DNA of 10,005 bases from Alphaproteobacteria bacterium. GTDB lineage: Bacteria; Pseudomonadota; Alphaproteobacteria; RF32; CAG-239. Both the position numbers and the translations under genes were made by a program. The notes under the pieces were generated by a model. The model was not told the DNA's origin and ran no database searches. It was given only the letters and a program-made list of their open reading frames with translations. This document shows, piece after piece, positions 2,637 through 9,130 of the stretch. Location of the stretch: positions 1 through 10,005 of the forward strand of contig JAGCFG010000019.1 in assembly GCA_017650255.1 (NCBI GenBank), written 5' to 3'. Each line of letters starts with the position of its first letter. Positions within the stretch are counted from its first letter, which is position 1.

Positions 2637-2672
2637 AAAAAATGTCGGCTTTCTTCCAACAGAAAACCGACA
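2637..2672 (-). terminator. Rho-independent terminator of repeat gene R1
   Basis: On the minus strand a stem TGTCGG/CCGACA, extended by TTCT/AGAA, is followed by six T. It lies 15 bases after the R1 stop and separates the repeat array from tolQ. It belongs to the GTCGG class of array hairpins. Confidence 0.85.
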
Positions 2673-2687
2673 CATCAGAGCAAAAGA

Positions 2688-3017
2688 CTATATTTTTTCT
2701 TTACTGAAACGCTCAAAAAGTTCTACCTGAGCCTTTTGGCAAAGAGGATGCAAATCAAGATAAGATTTGATAAGCTTAGGAGTACTGTGCTTGGCCAGTT
2801 CAACGGCCACTTCATCACAAAAAGCATGATACTTGGCATAGACCAAAATAGAATCAGATTTTCTCGACTTCACAAGCTCCATTTCTGCATCTCTGTCAAG
2901 CGAAAAGTCACGCACATAGCGTTTGAGAAGAGTAACATTTCCAAGCTTAATCAGCTTGATTTGCTCGGGCAAAGAAAGACTTTTCCCGTCCTTAATTTTT
3001 TGTTTTATCGTTTCCAT
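2688..3017 (-). CDS. 26-residue repeat (predicted alpha-solenoid) protein R1
   Basis: The 109-residue soluble protein has no signal peptide or membrane segment and no family I recognise. After a charged cap (METIKQKIKDG, nearly identical to R2) come about four repeat units: the LSLPEQIKLIKLGN unit, the LDRDAEMELVKSRKS unit, a CDEVAVELAK unit and a last partial CQKAQVELF unit. Each unit pairs an AExELVK-like helix with a xLIxxY-like helix, so a two-helix solenoid is expected. The third unit is the most degenerate, with HST in place of the usual G[ND]. The frame extends back to a TTG at 3023, but the ATG at 3017 matches the other family starts. No Shine-Dalgarno sequence is visible. It is the last gene of the array and has its own promoter and terminator. 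Function is unknown. Confidence 0.85.
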   Translation of the reverse strand: METIKQKIKDGKSLSLPEQIKLIKLGNVTLLKRYVRDFSLDRDAEMELVKSRKSDSILVYAKYHAFCDEVAVELAKHSTPKLIKSYLDLHPLCQKAQVELFERFSKEKI

Positions 3018-3057
3018 ACACAATGATATTTGGGTTAATAATAAAATTCAACGCTCC

Positions 3058-3086
3058 AATAAAATCACATTCACGCAATTTGTCAA
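3058..3086 (-). promoter_or_regulatory. Array-type promoter of R1
   Basis: TTGACA (3081-3086) and TTTATT (3058-3063) are separated by exactly 17 bases. The -35 box is preceded by AAAAAC, as in the other array promoters. The -35 box begins 69 bases before the ATG. The AT-rich leader contains the shared AATTTTATTATTA stretch. Confidence 0.7.
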
Positions 3087-3090
3087 GTTT

Positions 3091-3122
3091 TTCAATTTCG
3101 ATACACAACAAATTTGCTCAAC
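3091..3122 (-). repeat. Possible remnant of an array promoter/leader
   Basis: On the minus strand AAATTTGTTGTG is followed by TATCGAAATTGA. This resembles the leader segments of R3 (AAATTTGTTATC, then TATCGAAATTCA) and R2 (AAATTTGTTTTT, then ATTGAAATTTA). It lies immediately upstream of the R1 -35 box and has no gene behind it. It may be the leftover of a deleted unit. Confidence 0.4.
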
Positions 3123-3166
3123 AAAAAATGTTATCATTTGCTTTTGGGGCAAAAAAACAAATAATT

Positions 3167-3270
3167 GTCATGCCTCCGAGGACAAAAGTCAGAGGTCAAG
3201 GCATCTACCGCTTTTATTTTAATAAGTCGAAGATCCCTTGATTTTTTGCTCACGCAAAAAAAGGGATGAC
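3167..3270 (+). repeat. Composite palindromic intergenic repeat, copy 1
   Basis: The element is bounded by GTCATGCCT at the left and AGGGATGAC at the right, forming an imperfect terminal inverted repeat. It contains two hairpins. The left one (3167-3205) pairs ATGCCT with AGGCAT. The right one (3232-3267) pairs ATCCCTT with AAGGGAT, with TTTTTTGC/GCAAAAAA inside. A related copy in the opposite orientation lies at 7213-7297 and shares an exact 18-base core, AAGTCGAAGATCCCTTGA. Similar GTCAT...ATC palindromes are common dispersed repeats in alphaproteobacteria. Confidence 0.75.
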
Positions 3271-3288
3271 AGGGGAATTTAAATAAAC

Positions 3289-3319
3289 GTCATTACAAGC
3301 GCAACACAGCGCTCCATCC
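3289..3319. repeat. Short palindromic element (GTCATTAC...CATCC)
   Basis: A small hairpin, AGCGC/GCGCT with a 6-base loop, is framed by GTCATTAC on one side and CATCC on the other. The format resembles the widespread alphaproteobacterial GTCAT...ATCCA palindromes. It sits between composite copy 1 and the R2 terminator. Confidence 0.5.
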
Positions 3320-3332
3320 TTCCCAAAAAACA

Positions 3333-3360
3333 CAAAAAAAGGAAGGTCTTTAACCTTCCT
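3333..3360 (-). terminator. Rho-independent terminator of R2
   Basis: The perfect 8-bp stem AGGAAGGT/ACCTTCCT has a 5-base loop and is followed on the minus strand by seven T. It lies 15 bases past the R2 stop and belongs to the GGAAGG class. Confidence 0.9.
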
Positions 3361-3375
3361 GAATTTGCTCACTTT

Positions 3376-3669
3376 TCAAACAATCGGATAGCGCTTATGA
3401 TAAAGTTGAACAAGCTCCGGTTTTCCCAACTTTACAAGCTCCTTTTGTGCCTCAGTCCACAAAGTGTAGCGATTGATATACAACTCAATCAACGACACAT
3501 TTCCAAGCTTGATAAACTCTGTTTCCGCTTTCTGTGCAAAAAAACTTTTGTTAATATTTCGGCTGATATACTGCCGAACAAGTTCCACATTGCCTGACTT
3601 TACCAGCTTCAACTGCTCCTTTTCGGTCAGCCTTATTCCGTCTTTAATTTTCTGTTTTATCTTTTCCAT
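3376..3669 (-). CDS. 26-residue repeat (predicted alpha-solenoid) protein R2
   Basis: The 97-residue soluble protein is one of the cleanest representatives of the family. The cap MEKIKQKIKDG is followed by three units with textbook motifs: LTEKEQLKLVKSGNVELVRQYI, AQKAETEFIKLGNVSLIELYINRY, and WTEAQKELVKLGKPELVQLYHKRY. It ends three residues later, so the protein is almost nothing but repeats. It is the only member apart from R4's middle units with no Cys at the LC position; Ala or Trp replaces it. The ATG at 3669 is supported by the promoter spacing and by similarity of the start to R1, with no Shine-Dalgarno sequence. Three units is short for a stable solenoid, so it may oligomerise. Function is unknown. 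Confidence 0.85.
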   Translation of the reverse strand: MEKIKQKIKDGIRLTEKEQLKLVKSGNVELVRQYISRNINKSFFAQKAETEFIKLGNVSLIELYINRYTLWTEAQKELVKLGKPELVQLYHKRYPIV

Positions 3670-3700
3670 AATTTCGAATAATAATAAATTTCAATGGCTT

Positions 3701-3729
3701 AATAAAAACAAATTTCACCAACTTGTCAA
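3701..3729 (-). promoter_or_regulatory. Array-type promoter of R2
   Basis: TTGACA (3724-3729) and TTTATT (3701-3706) are 17 bases apart. The -35 box begins 60 bases before the ATG, the shortest distance in the array. The leader has GAAATTTATTATTATT and no Shine-Dalgarno sequence. Confidence 0.75.
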
Positions 3730-3744
3730 GTTTTTTTCGGCCGC

Positions 3745-3785
3745 AAAAAACGCCGACTTTTCTTTTAACTGGAAAACATCGGCGT
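3745..3785 (-). terminator. Rho-independent terminator of R3
   Basis: The outer stem ACGCCGA/TCGGCGT and an inner pairing of TTTTC with GAAAA are followed by T6 on the minus strand. It begins 8 bases past the R3 stop and belongs to the CGCCGA class. Confidence 0.9.
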
Positions 3786-3792
3786 CGGTTTT

Positions 3793-4035
3793 TCATTTAT
3801 CTTTCACAGATTCATATGCCATATAGGCTTCAGGGTTCATCTGGTAACGTTGACAATAAAGTTCTATCAACTCGACATCACACAATTTGACGAGTGCCAT
3901 CTCAGCTTCAGGACAAAACTTGCAAGACATCAAATGACGTTTGATTAATTCTTTGTCGCCGGATTTTACCAGCTTCATTTGTTCTTTTTCAGACAACCGT
4001 TTTCTGGCTCTGATTTTTTCTTTAATTTCCTTCAT
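3793..4035 (-). CDS. 26-residue repeat (predicted alpha-solenoid) protein R3
   Basis: At 80 residues this is the shortest family member. A charged cap (MKEIKEKIRARK) leads into two full units of exactly 26 residues, LSEKEQMKLVKSGDKELIKRH and FCPEAEMALVKLCDVELIELY, and a partial third (MNPEAYMAYE). The CPEAE of unit 2 carries the recurrent Cys. With only 2.5 units it may be a truncated relative or a capping or regulatory partner, but the frame is intact and it has its own promoter and terminator, so I do not call it a pseudogene. The ATG at 4035 has no Shine-Dalgarno sequence. Function is unknown. Confidence 0.8.
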   Translation of the reverse strand: MKEIKEKIRARKRLSEKEQMKLVKSGDKELIKRHLMSCKFCPEAEMALVKLCDVELIELYCQRYQMNPEAYMAYESVKDK

Positions 4036-4070
4036 AATGATATTAAATTAATGATGAATTTCGATACCTC

Positions 4071-4099
4071 ATTGATAACAAATTTCCCCAATTTGTCAA
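4071..4099 (-). promoter_or_regulatory. Array-type promoter of R3
   Basis: TTGACA (4094-4099) is followed after 17 bases by ATCAAT (4071-4076); shifting by one base gives TATCAA, closer to a sigma-70 -10 box. The spacer is very similar to that of R2 (AATTGGGGAAATTTGTT against AGTTGGTGAAATTTGTT). The -35 box begins 64 bases before the ATG. Confidence 0.7.
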
Positions 4100-4111
4100 G
4101 TTTTAAACAAC

Positions 4112-4136
4112 AAAAAGGAAGGCTTTTAGCCCTCCT
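4112..4136 (-). terminator. Rho-independent terminator of R4
   Basis: The 9-bp stem AGGAGGGCT/AGCCTTCCT, with one G-U pair and a 3-base loop, is followed by five T on the minus strand. The stem starts on the last base of the R4 stop codon, so gene and terminator abut. It belongs to the GGAAGG class. Confidence 0.88.
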
Positions 4137-4714
4137 TAAATTTTCCACATTGCTTTGTGGTACTCTGCCAAATGTGAACCTTTCAGATTGGACAGTTCTA
4201 GCCTTGCCGCCTTTGAAAGCGGACAAATCTGGATATAGTCCTTAATCAGCTGAACATTTCCGAGTTTGACCAATTTTACTTCGGCATTCGGATGGAGAGA
4301 ATTTTTCTCCATATACCATTTCAAAAGGTCATAATCACCGCATTGCAAAAACTTAGATTCAGCCACCGCGCTGGTAAAATAGAACTTGTTGAGATACCTT
4401 TTCACAAGGTCCAAATCCCCAAGTTCCAACAGCTTCAGCTGAGCTTTCGGATGCAAAGAATAAGAATATTCTCGCAAAAGCTCCTGATTTCCAAGCTCCA
4501 ACATCGCAACCTCGGCAGCCGGACAGAAAGGCCACACCTTAACATACTCCAAAAGCATATCAAGATTGCCTGTCTTGAACATTTTCATTTGACCATCCTG
4601 TGACAACAAATGTTGTTTAATATACTGCCCGAACAACTCCATATCTCCGGACTGTACCAACTTAACTTCCTCCGCAGGCAAAAGCCGCTCAATCGGTTCG
4701 AATTTCTTTTCCAT
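4136..4714 (-). CDS. 26-residue repeat (predicted alpha-solenoid) protein R4
   Basis: The 192-residue soluble protein has about seven repeat units. It begins with a divergent cap (MEKKFEPIERLLPAEEVKLV), then units headed by SQDGQMKMF, CPAAEVAMLELGN, HPKAQLKLLELGD, a TSAVAESKFLQCGD unit, HPNAEVKLVKLGN and a last SKAARLELSN unit. The heading residue varies (Ser, Cys, His, Thr), with His in two units where other members have Cys. The frame is open to 4783, but that start would fall inside the -35 box; the ATG at 4714 fits the conserved promoter-to-start distance and the MEK- family start. It ends with MWKI. No Shine-Dalgarno sequence is seen. Function is unknown. Confidence 0.85.
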   Translation of the reverse strand: MEKKFEPIERLLPAEEVKLVQSGDMELFGQYIKQHLLSQDGQMKMFKTGNLDMLLEYVKVWPFCPAAEVAMLELGNQELLREYSYSLHPKAQLKLLELGDLDLVKRYLNKFYFTSAVAESKFLQCGDYDLLKWYMEKNSLHPNAEVKLVKLGNVQLIKDYIQICPLSKAARLELSNLKGSHLAEYHKAMWKI

Positions 4715-4754
4715 AAAATAATATATTAGTGCATAATAAAATTTTCCGCTCGCA

Positions 4755-4783
4755 AAAAAATCACAATTTTTATTTTTTGTCAA
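4755..4783 (-). promoter_or_regulatory. Array-type promoter of R4
   Basis: TTGACA (4778-4783) lies 17 bases from TTTTTT (4755-4760), within the TTGTGATTTT context shared with R5 and R6. The -35 box begins 69 bases before the chosen ATG. The leader contains GAAAATTTTATTATG. Confidence 0.65.
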
Positions 4784-4795
4784 GTTTAAAGCCCT

Positions 4796-4834
4796 AAAAA
4801 AACGCCGATGCTCTCATATAAAGAACATCAGCGT
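4796..4834 (-). terminator. Rho-independent terminator of R5
   Basis: A 13-bp stem, ACGCTGATGTTCT with AGAGCATCGGCGT (including G-U pairs), has a 7-base loop and is followed by T7 on the minus strand. It lies 7 bases after the R5 stop and belongs to the CGCCGA class. Confidence 0.9.
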
Positions 4835-4841
4835 CAAAATC

Positions 4842-5423
4842 TCACTCAGCCCTAGGAATTTTTTTCATTTTCTCCAACTCTTCTTGAGCCTCTGCGCCAA
4901 AATTATATCTGCACAGATAATGCTCAATCAGTTCATCATCTCCCCTTTTGACCAGCTCAATTTCCGCCGACCGCCAAAGCATATTCTCCCTGAAATAAAT
5001 TTTCAACACTTCAGCACTGCCGTTCTTGGCCAGCTCAATCTCAGCCTCCTCACACAAAGGATACAGATGATTTTCCAGATAAAATTTTATCAGTTCCTCA
5101 TTTCCAAGCTTCACAAATTCTTCCTCGGCAGTTTCACAGTCAAAAACGTCGACAGAAATAAATGCCCTAATCAAATCGACATTCTTCGTTTTGACGAGAG
5201 CAATTTGCGTATCGCTACACAAAAACCTGCGCCTATACATCATATAAAATTGCACAAGGTCAACATCACCACGCTCTACCAAAGCCACTTCGGCATCACA
5301 GCACAAGTTTTTTTTGCTCAAATACTCTCGAACCTGCTCTTCATCGCCGTATTTCACAAACTTAACTTGTTCCTTTTTACTTAAAGGAAGCATCTTTTGA
5401 ACTTTTTTTAAAATTTTTTCCAT
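4842..5423 (-). CDS. 26-residue repeat (predicted alpha-solenoid) protein R5
   Basis: The 193-residue soluble protein has about seven units. The cap MEKILKKVQKMLPLSKKEQVKFVKYGD leads into units starting LCCDAEVALVERGD, LCSDTQIALVKTKN, DCETAEEEFVKLGN, LCEEAEIELAKNG, LWRSAEIELVKRGD and FGAEAQEELEK. Several units have two to three extra residues between repeats, so spacing is looser than in R3 or R8. It has the most Cys-headed units (three, plus one shifted Cys), making it the best candidate for a cysteine ladder. The ATG at 5423 matches the family start; an out-of-frame ATG lies just upstream and no Shine-Dalgarno sequence is seen. It lies directly downstream of the EF-Tu fragment gene but is separated from it by a terminator and its own promoter. 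Confidence 0.85.
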   Translation of the reverse strand: MEKILKKVQKMLPLSKKEQVKFVKYGDEEQVREYLSKKNLCCDAEVALVERGDVDLVQFYMMYRRRFLCSDTQIALVKTKNVDLIRAFISVDVFDCETAEEEFVKLGNEELIKFYLENHLYPLCEEAEIELAKNGSAEVLKIYFRENMLWRSAEIELVKRGDDELIEHYLCRYNFGAEAQEELEKMKKIPRAE

Positions 5424-5462
5424 ACATAAATATTTTAATAATAATAAAATTTCCAGGCCGCC

Positions 5463-5491
5463 ACAAAATCACATTTTCTGATTTTTGTCAA
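5463..5491 (-). promoter_or_regulatory. Array-type promoter of R5
   Basis: TTGACA (5486-5491) and TTTTGT (5463-5468) are 17 bases apart. The spacer AAAATCAGAAAATGTGA is nearly the same as those of the EF-Tu fragment and R6. The -35 box begins 68 bases before the ATG. Confidence 0.75.
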
Positions 5492-5503
5492 GTTTTAAAC
5501 AAC

Positions 5504-5529
5504 AAAAACCGCTCCGATAGAGGAACGGT
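5504..5529 (-). terminator. Rho-independent terminator of the EF-Tu fragment gene
   Basis: The stem ACCGTTCC/GGAGCGGT, with one G-U pair and a 6-base loop, is followed by T5 on the minus strand. It matches neither of the two main hairpin families of the array closely. It lies 7 bases after the stop. Confidence 0.88.
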
Positions 5530-5536
5530 CCTTGTT

Positions 5537-6118
5537 TTACTTCAAAATTTTTGAGATTACGCCGGTGGCAATTTTTCTCTTACCTTTGAAAATAGGGAAA
5601 CTGGTGCCCTCTTCCATCACCAACGGACAAATCAATTCAATCGTCACATCGGCACTGTCTTTCGGCATCACCTTGTCAGCCCCGTCAGGCAACAAAATTT
5701 GCCCGGTAACTTTGACGGTATTAAAACCGAATTGCAGCAACGCTTTGTGGCATAACGGAATTCCGCCCTCTTTCTCGGCCAAAACAAGGCACTTTGCCTC
5801 AAATTTCGAGTGCGCAACCGCTGTTCCGGGGGTTGCCAGTACTTGCCCGGGAGTAATATCTTCTTTTTTCACTCCGCGGAGCTGAACACCGATATTATCA
5901 CCGGCTTTTGCCTCATCAAGCAGCTGACGAAATTTTTCAATTTGGACGGCGACTGTTTTTTGGGTCTTATTAAATCCGACAATTTCCAGCTCGTCCCCCT
6001 TGCGAATAACACCGCTCACTACTCGACCGATAACAAAGGTGCCGCGGCCGGTAACATTGAAAACACTGTCAATCGGCATCAAAAATGCCTGTTTTTCTGA
6101 ATTTTGTTCATTTTCCAT
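5537..6118 (-). CDS. Stand-alone EF-Tu domains 2 and 3, lacking the GTPase domain
   Basis: The 193-residue protein aligns by eye with the last two beta-barrel domains of elongation factor Tu, which carries aminoacyl-tRNA to the ribosome. After 11 polar residues it enters domain 2 at FLMPIDSVFNVTGRGTFVIGR (EF-Tu: [21 protein letters not shown]). It continues through EIVGFNKTQK, IEKFRQLLDEAKAGDNIGVQLRG and PGQVLATPGT into domain 3 (KFEAKCLVLAEKEGG, FGFNTVKVTG, VMPKDSADVTIELICPL). There is no G domain: no P loop, DCPG or NKCD motif, and the upstream DNA is promoter. Domain 2 keeps residues matching the EF-Tu aminoacyl pocket (GRGT, the E and FR of IEKFR, the N of GDN). Domain 3 has lost the HTPFFKGYRPQFY region and is shorter there. 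The clean boundary and intact promoter and terminator argue for a functional paralog. It may bind tRNA ends or an EF-Tu partner, but this is inference. Confidence 0.9.
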   Translation of the reverse strand: MENEQNSEKQAFLMPIDSVFNVTGRGTFVIGRVVSGVIRKGDELEIVGFNKTQKTVAVQIEKFRQLLDEAKAGDNIGVQLRGVKKEDITPGQVLATPGTAVAHSKFEAKCLVLAEKEGGIPLCHKALLQFGFNTVKVTGQILLPDGADKVMPKDSADVTIELICPLVMEEGTSFPIFKGKRKIATGVISKILK

Positions 6119-6159
6119 AAAAAATAATTTTTAGTTCATAATAAAATTTTCAGACCGAC

Positions 6160-6188
6160 ACAAAACCATATTTTCCGATTTTTGTCAA
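6160..6188 (-). promoter_or_regulatory. Array-type promoter of the EF-Tu fragment gene
   Basis: TTGACA (6183-6188) and TTTTGT (6160-6165) are 17 bases apart. The spacer AAAATCGGAAAATATGG differs from that of R5 at only a few bases. The -35 box begins 70 bases before the ATG and the leader has GAAAATTTTATTATG. The promoter places this unrelated protein in the same regulon as the repeat proteins. Confidence 0.75.
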
Positions 6189-6193
6189 GCAAC

Positions 6194-6227
6194 AAAAAAC
6201 GCCGACACTCATTACAAGTATCGACGT
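6194..6227 (-). terminator. Rho-independent terminator of R6
   Basis: An 11-bp stem, ACGTCGATACT with AGTGTCGGCGT (two G-U pairs), has a 7-base loop and is followed by T6 on the minus strand. It lies 8 bases after the R6 stop and belongs to the CGCCGA class. Confidence 0.9.
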
Positions 6228-6235
6228 TAGCAGGT

Positions 6236-7048
6236 TTACAAATCACCGTCATCACCGGGACGAAAGAAACACTTCACATGGAGGTTGCGTTCCACCCCCC
6301 AGCGTTTTTCATAAGCGGCAATCAGCTTCTCGTTGCCGAGCTTCAGCAGCTCTTCTTCTGCCGGCGGAGAGAATCTGTATTTGTTAAAATAACATTTTAT
6401 CCGCTCGATATCACCGGTTTCGACCAACTTTGCTTCAACTTCCATAAGAAAGTCATCGTGAGAAATATAAATCTTAAAAATTTCAACATTTTTAGACTTG
6501 ATAACTCTTATCTGAGCAGCTTCATCAAAACCGTGATCTTTCAGATAAGCTTTAAGCATCTCAAGATTTGCCATTTTAACAAGTTCATTTTGGGCATCAT
6601 AACCAATTGTAAAATACTTGTTATACCTGCCCACGTAGATTTTCAGCAACTCGACATTCTGCAAGCGCACAAGAGCCAATTCCCCTTTATCATCCAAAGT
6701 AGCATGAGAAAGATAGTTTTTCAAAAACTTGACATCAGCGGACTTAATAAGCTCTGCCACAGCTTCATCAGCATAAATATTCACAGCCGTAATCAGCTCC
6801 ATATTACCTGTTTTGACAACCGCAACTTGCGCCTTTGTGCAAAGACCAAACTCATCATTATAGGCTTTAATAAACTCCAAATTGCCGGTTTTTACCAGCG
6901 CAATCTGGGCAGTTTCAGCCAATTCCAAAGACAAAGTCTTCTTGCTGATATATTGCCGCATAAGTTCCACATCACCGGTAGCAACCAGTTTTTTCTGCTC
7001 CTTTCTGCTGAGTGGAGCAATCATTTGAATTCTTTTTTTAATGTCCAT
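6236..7048 (-). CDS. 26-residue repeat (predicted alpha-solenoid) protein R6
   Basis: At 270 residues with about nine units this is the longest family member. After the cap MDIKKRIQMIAPLSRKEQKKLV it runs through units headed by TAQIALVKTGN, LCTKAQVAVVKTGN, DEAVAELIKSAD, DDKGELALVRLQN, YDAQNELVKMAN, DEAAQIRVIKSKN, MEVEAKLVETGD and PPAEEELLKLGN. A non-repeat tail (about the last 20 residues, ending RPGDDGDL) contains a Cys and a basic stretch. One unit near residue 75 is shortened by about three residues. No signal peptide or membrane helix is seen. The ATG at 7048 has no Shine-Dalgarno sequence; promoter spacing supports it. It precedes the EF-Tu fragment gene in transcription order, with a terminator between them. 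Confidence 0.85.
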   Translation of the reverse strand: MDIKKRIQMIAPLSRKEQKKLVATGDVELMRQYISKKTLSLELAETAQIALVKTGNLEFIKAYNDEFGLCTKAQVAVVKTGNMELITAVNIYADEAVAELIKSADVKFLKNYLSHATLDDKGELALVRLQNVELLKIYVGRYNKYFTIGYDAQNELVKMANLEMLKAYLKDHGFDEAAQIRVIKSKNVEIFKIYISHDDFLMEVEAKLVETGDIERIKCYFNKYRFSPPAEEELLKLGNEKLIAAYEKRWGVERNLHVKCFFRPGDDGDL

Positions 7049-7089
7049 AATATTAATAATTTTAAATTTATAATACTCATTTAGCCATC

Positions 7090-7118
7090 ACAAAATCACA
7101 TTTTCATATTTTTGTCAA
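7090..7118 (-). promoter_or_regulatory. Array-type promoter of R6
   Basis: TTGACA (7113-7118) and TTTTGT (7090-7095) are 17 bases apart with spacer AAAATATGAAAATGTGA. The -35 box begins 70 bases before the ATG. The leader is AT-rich but diverges from the AATTTTATTATT core of the others. Confidence 0.75.
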
Positions 7119-7153
7119 GTTTTTTCAAATAGTGACAGGCACATAAAATAAAC

Positions 7154-7193
7154 TTCATCACGCGGAGGACTGCAAGTCCTACGTAGTGATCCA
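7154..7193. repeat. Palindromic element (TCATCAC...GTGATCCA)
   Basis: The imperfect hairpin ATCACGCGGAGGACT/AGTCCTACGTAGTGAT has a very short loop and is flanked by TC on one side and CCACGAC on the other. The layout resembles dispersed alphaproteobacterial palindromes. It lies next to composite repeat copy 2. Confidence 0.6.
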
Positions 7194-7212
7194 CGACAAA
7201 TTACATATAACA

Positions 7213-7297
7213 GTCATCCCTCCAAAAACGTCAGTTTTTGGTCAAGGGATCTTCGACTTTTCTTTACACCTCGGACTTTTGCCCTCAAAGGCATGAC
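7213..7297 (-). repeat. Composite palindromic intergenic repeat, copy 2
   Basis: This is related to 3167-3270 but inverted. Read on the minus strand it begins GTCATGCC, carries GGCAAAAGTCCGAGGT (copy 1 has GACAAAAGTCAGAGGT), then the identical core AAGTCGAAGATCCCTTGA, and ends AGGGATGAC. Its strong hairpin (7216-7250 on plus) has arms CCAAAAAC/GTTTTTGG where copy 1 has TTTTTTGC/GCAAAAAA, so pairing is kept despite sequence change. The outer AGGCAT arm of the other hairpin has been lost. Confidence 0.75.
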
Positions 7298-7324
7298 AAT
7301 CTGCAATTATCCTTTATCATATCA

Positions 7325-7351
7325 CAAAAAAAGGAAGGCTATTGCCCTCCT
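7325..7351 (-). terminator. Rho-independent terminator of R7
   Basis: The 8-bp stem AGGAGGGC/GCCTTCCT, with one G-U pair and a 4-base loop, is followed by T7 on the minus strand. The stem overlaps the last codons and stop of R7, so the end of the gene is part of the hairpin. It belongs to the GGAAGG class. Confidence 0.88.
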
Positions 7352-7977
7352 TTCTTTTTTTCAAAAAGTGAAAGTTTCCACCATTTTGCTTCATAAACTT
7401 GCAACAACCTGTCATTTCCCCGCAACACAAGCTCTCTTTCAGCATTGTCCGGCAAAGGTCGCCGATTGATATAACATTCCACAATCTTGGCGTTGGCGAT
7501 TTTAACAATCTCGGTCACATTGTCCGTGTAGAGATTGTTCCCCTGTCTTTGCATATACTTTTCAAACAAGCCGGCATCGCCGCGCTTTATCAACTCTCTT
7601 TCCAGCTTTTTGCCCAAAAGAAACCTGTTGAAATACAGCACCACCAACGCTGCCTCGCCTTGTTTGATAAGCATCTCTTGCGCGGCAGGAGAAAACTTGT
7701 GACCTTCGGAAATATACAGAGCAATCAGCTCTCCGTTCCCCGATTGCAAAAGCTTTATCTCGACTTCCTCCTCCAACCGATAATGAGCAACATTGCCGGA
7801 AACATAGTGTTTGAAACATGCCTGGTTTTCAGGCTTCAAGAGTTCAAATTCAGCCTCTTTGCAAAGACTGCAATTTTCCAAATACCTGTCAAACAGTTCC
7901 AAATCGCCTGATCTGACCAGTTCAATTTCTTCCTGCGCACACAACTTCTGTCCGCTTTCAATTTTTTCTCTATTCAT
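7339..7977 (-). CDS. 26-residue repeat (predicted alpha-solenoid) protein R7
   Basis: The 212-residue soluble protein has about seven units: LCAQEEIELVRSGDLELF, LCKEAEFELLKPEN, LEEEVEIKLLQSGNGELIALYI, FSPAAQEMLIKQGE, GKKLERELIKRGD, TDNVTEIVKIAN and PDNAERELVLRGNDRLLQVY. A short basic tail (FEKKKGGQ) overlaps the terminator. Two inter-repeat loops are longer than usual, at GNVAHY and QRQGNN. It is the only member with no -35 box: 84 bases separate its ATG (7977) from the R8 stop, and that gap holds the R8 stem and a truncated leader. It is therefore probably expressed by read-through from R8. No Shine-Dalgarno sequence is seen. Function is unknown. Confidence 0.83.
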   Translation of the reverse strand: MNREKIESGQKLCAQEEIELVRSGDLELFDRYLENCSLCKEAEFELLKPENQACFKHYVSGNVAHYRLEEEVEIKLLQSGNGELIALYISEGHKFSPAAQEMLIKQGEAALVVLYFNRFLLGKKLERELIKRGDAGLFEKYMQRQGNNLYTDNVTEIVKIANAKIVECYINRRPLPDNAERELVLRGNDRLLQVYEAKWWKLSLFEKKKGGQ

Positions 7978-8012
7978 AATACATATTTTAAATTAATAAT
8001 AAATTTCAATAG

Positions 8013-8052
8013 CTTAACGCCGACATTTCCTTAATTTAAGAAATATCGGCGT
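8013..8052 (-). terminator. R8 terminator stem without a U tract, fused to the R7 leader
   Basis: The 13-bp stem ACGCCGATATTTC/GAAATGTCGGCGT is followed on the minus strand by TAAGC instead of the six or so T present in the related hairpins of R3, R5 and R6. The next bases (TTAAGCTATTGAAATTTATT) match the R2 leader (TTAAGCCATTGAAATTTATT). It is probably a weakened terminator or processing hairpin within an R8-R7 transcript. Confidence 0.65.
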
Positions 8053-8061
8053 CAATTTTTC

Positions 8062-8508
8062 TTACAACGGCAAAGACACATCCGGATGATTAGCAATATG
8101 CAGAGCAATCAAATCTCTATTTCCCAGATCGACAAGTTCTTCTCTTGCTTTTCTCTCAAGAGGACGTTTGATAATATATGCACTGATACCATCGGCATTG
8201 CCGCTTTTGACAAGCTCAATCACGGCGCTTTCTGCCAAAAGATGTCTGTCCATATAAAGCACTATCAACTCGGAATCACCGGACTTTACCAACTCAATTT
8301 CCGCATCTTCGCAAAAAGAATAGCGCTTGATATAAGGCTTAATCCACTCCGGCTTGCCCTGTTTGACAAGCTCAATTTCAGCATACTTGCTCATGGGATA
8401 ATTTGCCGCATATATCTCAAACAACGACAAATTGCCAAGCTTTAAGAGTTCAACTTCTTTTCTCGGGGACAATGTTTGTCCGTCTTTAACTTTTTCTTCC
8501 AATTCCAT
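8062..8508 (-). CDS. 26-residue repeat (predicted alpha-solenoid) protein R8
   Basis: The 148-residue protein has five units of exactly 26 residues and shows the family period most clearly: SPRKEVELLKLGN, SKYAEIELVKQGKPEWIKPYIKRY, CEDAEIELVKSGDSELIVLYMDRH, AESAVIELVKSGNADGISAYI and ERKAREELVDLGNRDLIALHI. The cap (MELEEKVKDGQTL) resembles those of R1 and R2, and it ends soon after the last unit (DVSLPL). One unit carries the FC-x-x-AE cysteine. No signal peptide or membrane segment is seen. The ATG at 8508 has no Shine-Dalgarno sequence but is placed by promoter spacing. It is probably first in a two-gene unit with R7. Confidence 0.86.
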   Translation of the reverse strand: MELEEKVKDGQTLSPRKEVELLKLGNLSLFEIYAANYPMSKYAEIELVKQGKPEWIKPYIKRYSFCEDAEIELVKSGDSELIVLYMDRHLLAESAVIELVKSGNADGISAYIIKRPLERKAREELVDLGNRDLIALHIANHPDVSLPL

Positions 8509-8544
8509 AATAATATATTTTTTCTAATTACAACCATTGTCCGG

Positions 8545-8573
8545 CAAAATATCACGCAAATTGCTCTTGTCAA
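8545..8573 (-). promoter_or_regulatory. Array-type promoter of R8 (and probably R7)
   Basis: TTGACA (8568-8573) lies 17 bases from ATTTTG (8545-8550), within the GCGTGATATTTTG context similar to the GTGATTTTATT of R1. AAAAAAC precedes the -35 box as in its relatives. The -35 box begins 65 bases before the R8 ATG. Confidence 0.7.
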
Positions 8574-8618
8574 GTTTTTTCCTTGTCGTGTTCTGCTCTT
8601 TTCTTCTTTAAACCAAAC

Positions 8619-8649
8619 AAAAAAGGAAGGTCATTTTTCAACCTTCCTT
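8619..8649 (-). terminator. Rho-independent terminator of R9
   Basis: The perfect 9-bp stem AAGGAAGGT/ACCTTCCTT has a 9-base loop and is followed by further T on the minus strand. It lies 22 bases after the R9 stop and belongs to the GGAAGG class. Confidence 0.9.
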
Positions 8650-8671
8650 TATTCTCATCAAAGAGTTTGCC

Positions 8672-9130
8672 CTAAACAATCCGAAACTTGTCAGGCGCGA
8701 CATAAGCCTCGGCAAGGCCATTCCCACGCGACGGCAACATCTTGACAATGTCGTCACAAAGCGGAAACTTCGTCCCCACCATACAGAAAAGGTCTTCCTT
8801 GCGACCGTGCTCGAGCAGATATTTCTGCGCTGCATGGCTCAAGGGATAGCGCTTGATATACGTCTGCAGCAAGCGGCTATCCTTGCGTTTGATAAGAAGC
8901 ACCTCAGCATCTCCTGTGAAGGCACGCTTCTCAATGTAGGTATCAATCACCTCCGGACGGCAGTTGCCGACGAGAATTTTCTCTCCTTCGGGCGAAAGAT
9001 TATAGGCACGAACATAGCGCGAGGCTTCGTGATAGTCAGCATTCTGCATAAATGTCAGCTCCGACTTCGGGTCCAGACGAGGTCCGGTATAAGGCACCTC
9101 TACTTGCTTAATAATTCTATGGCTTTTCAT
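8672..9130 (-). CDS. Divergent 26-residue repeat protein R9
   Basis: The 152-residue soluble protein is first in transcription order within the array. An N-terminal stretch unlike the others (about 1-19, ending YTGPRL) is followed by about five units: DPKSELTFMQNAD, SPEGEKILVGNCRPEVIDTYIEKR, TGDAEVLLIKRKDSRLLQTYIKRY, SHAAQKYLLEHGRKED and CDDIVKMLPSRGN. The middle two are clearly family-like (TYIEKRAF, TYIKRYPLS), while the last two have lost the LI-x-x-Y half. Its DNA is visibly richer in G and C than the other repeat genes, and its promoter is of a different type. The ATG at 9130 is preceded only by a weak AAGAA. It may be an older or separately regulated member. Function is unknown. Confidence 0.82.
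   Translation of the reverse strand: MKSHRIIKQVEVPYTGPRLDPKSELTFMQNADYHEASRYVRAYNLSPEGEKILVGNCRPEVIDTYIEKRAFTGDAEVLLIKRKDSRLLQTYIKRYPLSHAAQKYLLEHGRKEDLFCMVGTKFPLCDDIVKMLPSRGNGLAEAYVAPDKFRIV

What the first reader, a model, noticed from the sequence alone, without database searches (positions are those of the whole stretch)
2688..9130. Tandem array of nine paralogous 26-residue-repeat proteins between tolQRA and ctrA
Nine adjacent genes encode proteins made almost wholly of one degenerate repeat, [LF]C-x-x-AExELVKxG[ND]xELIxxYIxRY, in about 2.5 to 9 units each. The period is exactly 26 in R3 and R8. The spacing of hydrophobic residues fits a two-helix solenoid reminiscent of LRV or HEAT repeats, but I know no named family with this consensus. 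Local expansion, variable unit number and lack of any other domain suggest a diversifying family of binding or scaffold proteins. That function is inference.
Basis: partly seen in the sequence, partly recalled or inferred. Interest (0 to 1): 0.85.

Follow-up and report, generated by a model that had tools for sequence, protein, structure and literature searches.

The report
Gut bacterial ankyrin-like helical repeat array
A small-genome gut bacterium carries a cluster of nine different genes, each making a protein built only of short paired helices, an unnamed, fast-changing family that looks like a home-grown set of binding proteins whose targets are unknown.

Summary
Nine minus-strand genes encode proteins made of a 26-residue repeat (44 units at >=8 bits; shuffles average 0.01). 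They are not strictly adjacent: an EF-Tu domain 2+3 gene without the GTPase domain lies between R5 and R6. AlphaFold2 gives an all-helical solenoid of paired helices (R8: pLDDT 96.1; R5: 87.2). Among solved folds ankyrins and DARPins dominate, but the unit lacks ankyrin's hairpin, length and TPLH motif, and no Pfam or NCBIfam model reaches its cut-off. The family occurs in 75 of 152 genomes of one bacterial family and in none sampled outside it. The window's genome holds about 27 members. Orthologous or best-matching pairs are 45-68% identical, against 87-98% for eight neighbours. I read it as a lineage-specific repertoire of ankyrin-like binding modules, mostly expressed as single-gene cassettes. 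Protein binding is inferred; partners are unknown. A type IV secretion ATPase gene is common in these genomes (113 of 136), so host-directed effectors remain a serious rival.

The parts
2688..3017 (-). R1, repeat protein, 109 aa from ATG (a TTG start at 3023 is possible), 3 units
3376..3669 (-). R2, repeat protein, 97 aa, 3 units
3793..4035 (-). R3, repeat protein, 80 aa, 2 units, exact 26 spacing
4136..4714 (-). R4, repeat protein, 192 aa, 7 units
4842..5423 (-). R5, repeat protein, 193 aa, 6 units; AF2 model (single sequence) pLDDT 87.2
5537..6118 (-). Inserted non-repeat gene: EF-Tu domains 2 and 3 without the GTPase domain, 193 aa, upstream region like that of the repeat genes
6236..7048 (-). 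R6, repeat protein, 270 aa, 9 units
7339..7977 (-). R7, repeat protein, 212 aa, 7 units
8062..8508 (-). R8, repeat protein, 148 aa, 5 units at exact 26 spacing; AF2 model pLDDT 96.1, pTM 0.87
8672..9130 (-). R9, divergent member, 152 aa, 2 clear units, best match 53% identical in the nearest genome
3018..3088 (-). TTGACA box and SD-less AU-rich leader of R1
   Evidence: the model was built from it
3665..3731 (-). TTGACA box and leader of R2
   Evidence: the model was built from it
4032..4101 (-). TTGACA box and leader of R3
   Evidence: the model was built from it
4710..4785 (-). TTGACA box and leader of R4
   Evidence: the model was built from it
5419..5493 (-). TTGACA box and leader of R5
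   Evidence: the model was built from it
6114..6189 (-). TTGACA box and leader of the EF-Tu domain gene
   Evidence: the model was built from it
7044..7120 (-). TTGACA box and leader of R6
   Evidence: the model was built from it
7976..8037 (-). Leader of R7 (no TTGACA box seen; not used to build the model)
   Evidence: E 0.003
8504..8575 (-). Promoter-like stretch of R8 and weak leader match
   Evidence: E 0.85
2642..2673 (-). Terminator-like hairpin after R1
3340..3360 (-). Terminator-like hairpin after R2
4115..4137 (-). Terminator-like hairpin after R4
4801..4835 (-). Terminator-like hairpin after R5
6198..6228 (-). Terminator-like hairpin after R6
8622..8650 (-). Terminator-like hairpin after R9

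Best explanation
The array is one of several clusters of a lineage-specific protein family in small-genome gut alphaproteobacteria. Each protein is a cytosolic alpha-solenoid of stacked two-helix units (about 10 + 10 residues, period 26) that packs like ankyrin repeats without the beta-hairpin (predicted). The positions best kept among units (3, 7, 8, 11, 12, 15, 16, 19, 20, 23) form core and turns and the variable helix positions the surface (inferred from the sequence pattern, not computed on the models). Each protein probably acts by holding a different partner protein on that surface, as inhibitor, adaptor or scaffold (inferred from fold and evolution, not shown). Most genes look like self-contained cassettes: seven of nine have a TTGACA box upstream, none of the nine a Shine-Dalgarno site, and six a listed terminator-like hairpin, so single genes can be copied, gain or lose units and diverge. 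Fast divergence of genes that are nonetheless kept points to partners that change, most likely proteins of a host, competitor or phage (inferred).
Confidence: 0.55

Rival explanations
1. The proteins are type IV secretion effectors that act inside a eukaryotic host (gut protists or the animal), like the ankyrin effectors of intracellular bacteria.
For: VirB4-type family PF03135 in 113 of 136 genomes of the family, own genome included, and T6SS VipB in 0 of 136. Most genomes are 1.0-2.0 Mb and named CtrA relatives come from animal guts. Ankyrin effectors of Legionella and Rickettsia are reviewed in PMC11514114 (section 5, part 1 read).
Against: The VirB4 gene is common with or without repeats (G002 and G006 have it and no repeat match), and G001, the second richest genome of the genus (24 matched places, 92% complete), has no VirB4 hit. 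No secretion signal could be tested. The lineage is not shown to live in host cells.
Confidence: 0.22
2. They are true ankyrin repeats by descent that lost the beta-hairpin, a divergent branch of the ankyrin superfamily.
For: Ankyrins and DARPins dominate the solved structural neighbours and most named rows of the viral list; 132 of R8's residues lie on a 160-residue chain, as five 26-residue units on five longer ones would. The G-[ND]-x-E-L-[IV] step resembles ankyrin's G-H-x-E-[IV]-V step (unit consensus; ankyrin motif recalled).
Confidence: 0.3
3. They are an orphan immunity or antitoxin repertoire against polymorphic toxins of competitors.
For: Tandem single-gene units without hydrophobic segments, diverging fast.
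Against: No toxin family was recognised beside them in the window; no T6SS in 136 family genomes; only stray PADLOC hits.
Confidence: 0.15
4. They are nucleic-acid-binding solenoids (Pumilio- or TALE-like) that act on AU-rich leaders, their own included.
For: Two-helix units and a conserved AU-rich leader before many of the genes; Pumilio domains appear further down the Foldseek lists.
Against: Net charge ranges from -8 to +8, and the leader also precedes unrelated genes.
Confidence: 0.06
5. The array is a by-product of gene duplication with no selected function.
For: 77 of 152 family genomes have no match at E <= 1e-6, so the family is dispensable; dN/dS is higher than in neighbours.
Against: Frames stay open and two syntenic pairs show dN/dS of 0.13 and 0.20; the leader is kept across genera.
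Confidence: 0.05

Closest known systems
Ankyrin repeats and designed ankyrin repeat proteins (DARPins)
   Same: Antiparallel helix pair per unit, stacked; dominant among solved structural neighbours of both models; conserved framework with variable positions; pure-repeat proteins.
   Different: Unit 26 instead of 30-34 residues, no beta-hairpin, no TPLH motif, conserved Y23 and L/F3-[SC]4, no Pfam ankyrin match (ankyrin features from PMC11514114, section 5).
De novo designed helical repeat proteins (DHR54; 5cwo)
   Same: Best Foldseek E-value for R5 (DHR54, 0.043) and best, weak profile match in the PDB (5cwo, E 0.028).
   Different: Designed proteins; TM only about 0.2 for DHR54; no common descent possible.
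LRV and HEAT repeats
   Same: Short helical repeats; a phage LRV protein is second in the viral library (E 0.013, TM 0.38) and an archaeal HEAT-like protein is in R8's Foldseek list (E 2.0).
   Different: No Pfam LRV or HEAT match and none seen by title among the 50 entries listed for either model by the second aligner.
Expanded ankyrin gene families of intracellular bacteria
   Same: Many paralogous pure-repeat genes in a small genome with a VirB4-type gene.
   Different: No sequence relation found; host cell and translocation not shown.

Membership tests
Alpha-solenoid proteins | Tandem stacked all-helical units forming an elongated domain | tested here: met
   AF2 models of R5 and R8: 13 and 11 helices, nearly all in regular pairs, no strands. 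Prediction only.
Ankyrin repeat | Unit of 30-34 residues | tested here: not met
   Lag 26; 44 units fitted at 26. Definition from PMC11514114.
Ankyrin repeat | Beta-hairpin between helix pairs | tested here: not met
   No strand in either model.
Ankyrin repeat | TPLH motif and glycines at 4, 15, 27 | tested here: not met
   Unit consensus has no TPLH and one conserved Gly, at unit position 15, in 31 of 44.
Ankyrin repeat | Match to ankyrin profiles | tested here: not met
   No ankyrin model for 9 of 9 window members up to E 10 or for 10 further members up to E 0.1.
Ankyrin repeat | Same backbone arrangement of helix pairs | tested here: inconclusive
LRV, HEAT, ARM, TPR, Sel1, PPR, Pumilio, TAL repeats | Match to the family's Pfam profile at its cut-off | tested here: not met
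   Below cut-off only: TPR_EMC2 (R1, E 0.039), TPR_CFAP46_N (E 3.1e-5, 24.2 of 27 bits) and a HAT model (E 1.6e-4) for one highly repetitive relative, with no stretch passing on its own.
Type IV secretion effector | Translocation into a target cell | not testable with these tools
   Only the presence of PF03135 genes was tested (113 of 136).
Polymorphic toxin immunity protein | Cognate toxin gene next to it | tested here: inconclusive
   Window flanks are TolR, TolQ, CtrA, an EF-Tu fragment and two genes without a match; no toxin recognised. Other arrays were only read by eye.
Known anti-phage defence system | Match to PADLOC models | tested here: not met
   Only single-member hits, best E 0.0072, for 9 members.
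EF-Tu (for the inserted gene) | GTPase domain plus domains 2 and 3 | tested here: not met
   Domains 2 and 3 match (6e-19, 1.2e-12), the G domain is absent; 69 of 125 columns invariant in nine relatives' EF-Tu are kept.

The most novel reading that the evidence does not exclude
A natural DARPin-like repertoire: a bacterial lineage has evolved its own hairpin-less solenoid scaffold and uses tens of individually expressed, rapidly diversifying copies as a changeable set of protein binders against moving targets (host, competitor or phage proteins), many under a shared Shine-Dalgarno-less leader.
Probability: 0.15. Interest if true: 0.9.

Novelty: new variant of a known kind. Interest (0 to 1): 0.6.

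Why it matters
A large, unannotated repeat family takes up about 27 genes of one 1 Mb draft genome and is spread over 12 of 16 genera of a gut bacterial family, yet reached no Pfam or NCBIfam cut-off for 19 members tested. In prediction its units form a short ankyrin-like module with no hairpin, of use to students of repeat evolution and binder design, and its fast change gives a testable handle on what these uncultured gut bacteria fight or manipulate.

Tried and rejected
Searches that found nothing: R5 in phages and plasmids by tblastn; R8 in IMG/VR (27 pattern matches, none a relative); Rfam and tRNA in the window. PHROGs and PADLOC gave only single-member stray hits (best E 0.0016 and 0.0072). 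PDB profile searches gave nothing below E 0.028 (A1) and 0.14 (A4). The unit model against open frames of the 80 ctrA loci of named genomes gave no hit at E 1e-3; in a looser run on 15 of these loci two frames reached E 0.005 and 0.04 with one unit each, which I take as chance. So the array is not a standing feature of the ctrA neighbourhood; other sites in those genomes were not tested.

A first leader pattern was too strict and hit nothing, the window included; a model and a looser pattern replaced it. The idea that the leader belongs only to the repeat genes was dropped: of 16 pattern places in the own genome (1 in the reversed control) five precede repeat genes, nine precede other proteins, one is spurious and one is a second reading of the same start. 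hhalign of a unit pair against nine typed consensus repeats gave no signal (best score TPR 6.05, within the range of its shuffles, maximum 7.3). T6SS was absent (0 of 136); for VirB4 no association with repeats was visible, but no statistic was computed. Families absent from the aligner's lists are not excluded.

Literature: six searches listed no paper that by title or abstract start concerns this repeat; only the listed rows were seen and only open-licence papers are held. I saw passages of PMC8992543 and, of PMC11514114, passages, abstract, outline and part 1 of 2 of section 5; other papers were seen only as listings.
Full report
WHAT IS THERE. The window is contig C69 of a 1.01 Mb draft genome, 79% complete. 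On the minus strand lie, from left to right, an unmatched gene, a TolA-like gene, tolR, tolQ, nine repeat genes R1-R9 with one foreign gene between R5 and R6, and ctrA. The contig fits the genome's genus: its CtrA, TolQ and TolR are 98, 98 and 93% identical to those of the nearest genome, G001. The 15 named CtrA matches at 85-92% identity are uncultured alphaproteobacterial (one 'proteobacterium') assemblies; titles name roe deer rumen, caecum and colon and water buffalo colon among the sources. That they are GTDB order RF32 is my guess; PMC8992543 (passages) reports rumen alphaproteobacterial MAGs in orders Rs-D84 and RF32.

THE REPEAT. Lag 26 is the top or a leading lag in all nine proteins and is not among the five top lags of the EF-Tu gene. 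A matrix seeded with four R8 units settles on 44 units, all in the nine repeat proteins; it finds 0.01 on average in 100 sets of shuffled proteins. The matrix was trained on the units that it counts, so the contrast shows a shared repeat, not an independent discovery rate. Best-kept residues are Y23 (39 of 44), L11 (35), G15 (31), L19 (30), K13 (30), L3 (29) and A7 (27). The N-terminal stretch (consensus KIxxGxxLSxKEQxKLVKxG) is a shared first unit.

FAMILY AND RANGE. A profile of the nine proteins (A1) finds 34 places in the own genome on eight contigs at E <= 0.001. Matched by eye to open frames, these are about 27 genes: 9 on C69, 7 on C33, 3 on C6, 3 on C109, 2 on C114 and 1 each on C65, C93 and C131. 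A second flavour (LCxxAxLKxFxLPN) in the own and other genomes is homologous: profile-profile probability 99.8, E 2.7e-28 (shared repeat structure may inflate this). With A1, 75 of 152 genomes of the same family match at E <= 1e-6, 57 of 109 among the good ones, in 12 of 16 genera. Of 57 relatives 15 match, none of the 24 outside the family. Of 385 genomes spread over the class 3 match, all in this family. With the second profile (A4), 1 of 398 genomes over the phylum matches, the own genome. Other phyla were not searched except through Pfam, PDB, phage, plasmid and IMG/VR collections. In the own genus 2 of 13 genomes are rich (31 and 24 places), 4 have one or two places and 7 none.

EVOLUTION. 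The C33 array and the G001 C12 array are largely collinear. Six syntenic repeat pairs (four C33/C12, two C6/L113) and R9 with its best G001 match are 45-68% identical with dN 0.20-0.53; the R9 and one C6 pair share the same G001 gene, so the pairs are not all independent one-to-one orthologues. An eighth pair (C93/L111) is 27% and probably not orthologous. Eight neighbouring control genes are 87-98% identical with dN 0.007-0.094. dN/dS was 0.13 and 0.20 in the two syntenic pairs with computable dS (0.56 in the eighth pair), and 0.013-0.062 in seven controls; the rest are saturated. So the genes are under purifying selection but change several times faster in protein than their neighbours. Across 28 mapped units of six pairs, positions 8 (22 of 28), 7, 11 and 23 (20 of 28) are kept best and 9, 26, 5, 10 worst (6, 7, 8, 9 of 28); the correlation with within-window entropy is -0.57. 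There are exceptions both ways (12 and 15 kept in 14 and 15 of 28; 17 and 24 in 17 and 18), and no test of positive selection was possible at this distance. By BLAST score among 51 proteins, five of R1-R8 (R1, R2, R5, R7, R8) have as best G001 match a repeat gene that stands beside ctrA in G001; R3 and R6 point to another gene, and R4 shows no G001 gene among its top four. This suits growth of R1-R8 from a ctrA-side ancestor by tandem duplication, which I consider likely but not proven.

CASSETTES AND LEADER. R1-R6 and the EF gene share a TTGACA box and a leader (mean column identity 71%). The consensus scan, which also wants a good -10 hexamer, accepts only R8's promoter among these, so the promoters rest on conservation. 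Terminator-like hairpins are listed after R1, R2, R4, R5, R6 and R9, with a weak one at the end of R7 (14 sites found against 5.4 expected). The leader model finds further matches before repeat genes on C33 (three), C109 and, weakly, C65 (E 0.03), one at the end of contig C93 whose gene is cut off, and some before non-repeat genes. None of the ten genes (R1-R9, EF) has a Shine-Dalgarno-like stretch, nor 13 of 14 repeat genes elsewhere in the genome, against 11 of 16 control genes with one. Over 29 repeat genes of G001 and other genera, 22 carry TTATT in the leader and 0 a Shine-Dalgarno site; of 16 neighbours 1 and 8 (two of the 16 have little or no upstream sequence) (narrower pattern). Starts were picked mechanically. 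The leader pattern occurs 16 times in the own genome against 1 in the reversed control and also precedes membrane, lipoprotein-type and other proteins. It looks like a leader for lineage-specific single genes, not a private mark of this family.

THE EF-Tu PIECE. The inserted gene matches EF-Tu domains 2 and 3 only. It begins at the start of domain 2; in the roughly 120 bases between it and R6 I see a hairpin and the common upstream region but no G-domain remnant. It is about 50% identical to the relatives' full EF-Tu. In 32 genomes searched, the other hits are long frames (358 aa or more) or short pieces, many at contig ends; I saw no other frame of stand-alone size with both domains, though not every short piece was checked. 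It keeps 69 of 125 columns that are invariant in nine EF-Tu of relatives. Its role is unknown; a decoy or regulator that meets EF-Tu's partners is a guess.

HOW IT MOST LIKELY WORKS. Shown by computation: repeat, family range, shared upstream regions, rate contrast. Predicted: the fold. Inferred: cytosolic place (no strongly hydrophobic segment), protein binding through variable positions, and an opponent that changes. A VirB4-type gene in 113 of 136 family genomes leaves room for export into a host; T6SS VipB is absent in all 136.

LIMITS. One draft genome, unnamed relatives, no expression data, predicted structures only, and a fold comparison limited to solved structures and viral models.

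Noticed in passing
window 5537-6118 (-): Stand-alone EF-Tu domains 2+3 gene without GTPase domain, about 50% identical to relatives' EF-Tu, with the same kind of upstream region as the repeat genes; no other frame of that make-up seen in 32 genomes.
   Followed up: partly
upstream of R1 and R7 and of genes on C6, C15, C27, C33, C60, C74, C89, C114 of the own genome: SD-less AU-rich leader pattern (TTATTMAYYNAAA, 4-14 bases, ATG) 16 times in the genome against 1 in the reversed control; it precedes many lineage-specific single genes. Similar leaders stand before two small membrane proteins on C34.
   Followed up: partly
window about 3153-3299 and 7268-7300: Interspersed non-coding repeat between genes of the array, with copies 72-90% identical on several other contigs of the genome.
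   Followed up: no
L057 2430-2855 (+): Protein with a signal-peptide-like start and a tandem YGYNxxGDYVPTSVG repeat, inside the C33 array of repeat genes.
   Followed up: no
L114 3855-5648 (-): 597-residue protein rich in YYENGQLxxExNYKNGK repeats (MORN-variant-like by eye, name recalled) within a repeat array of another genus.
   Followed up: no
family-wide; own genome C126:1516-2007: One VirB4/TrbE-type gene per genome in 113 of 136 genomes of the family, most frames 810-831 codons long, suggesting a conserved chromosomal type IV secretion system.
   Followed up: no
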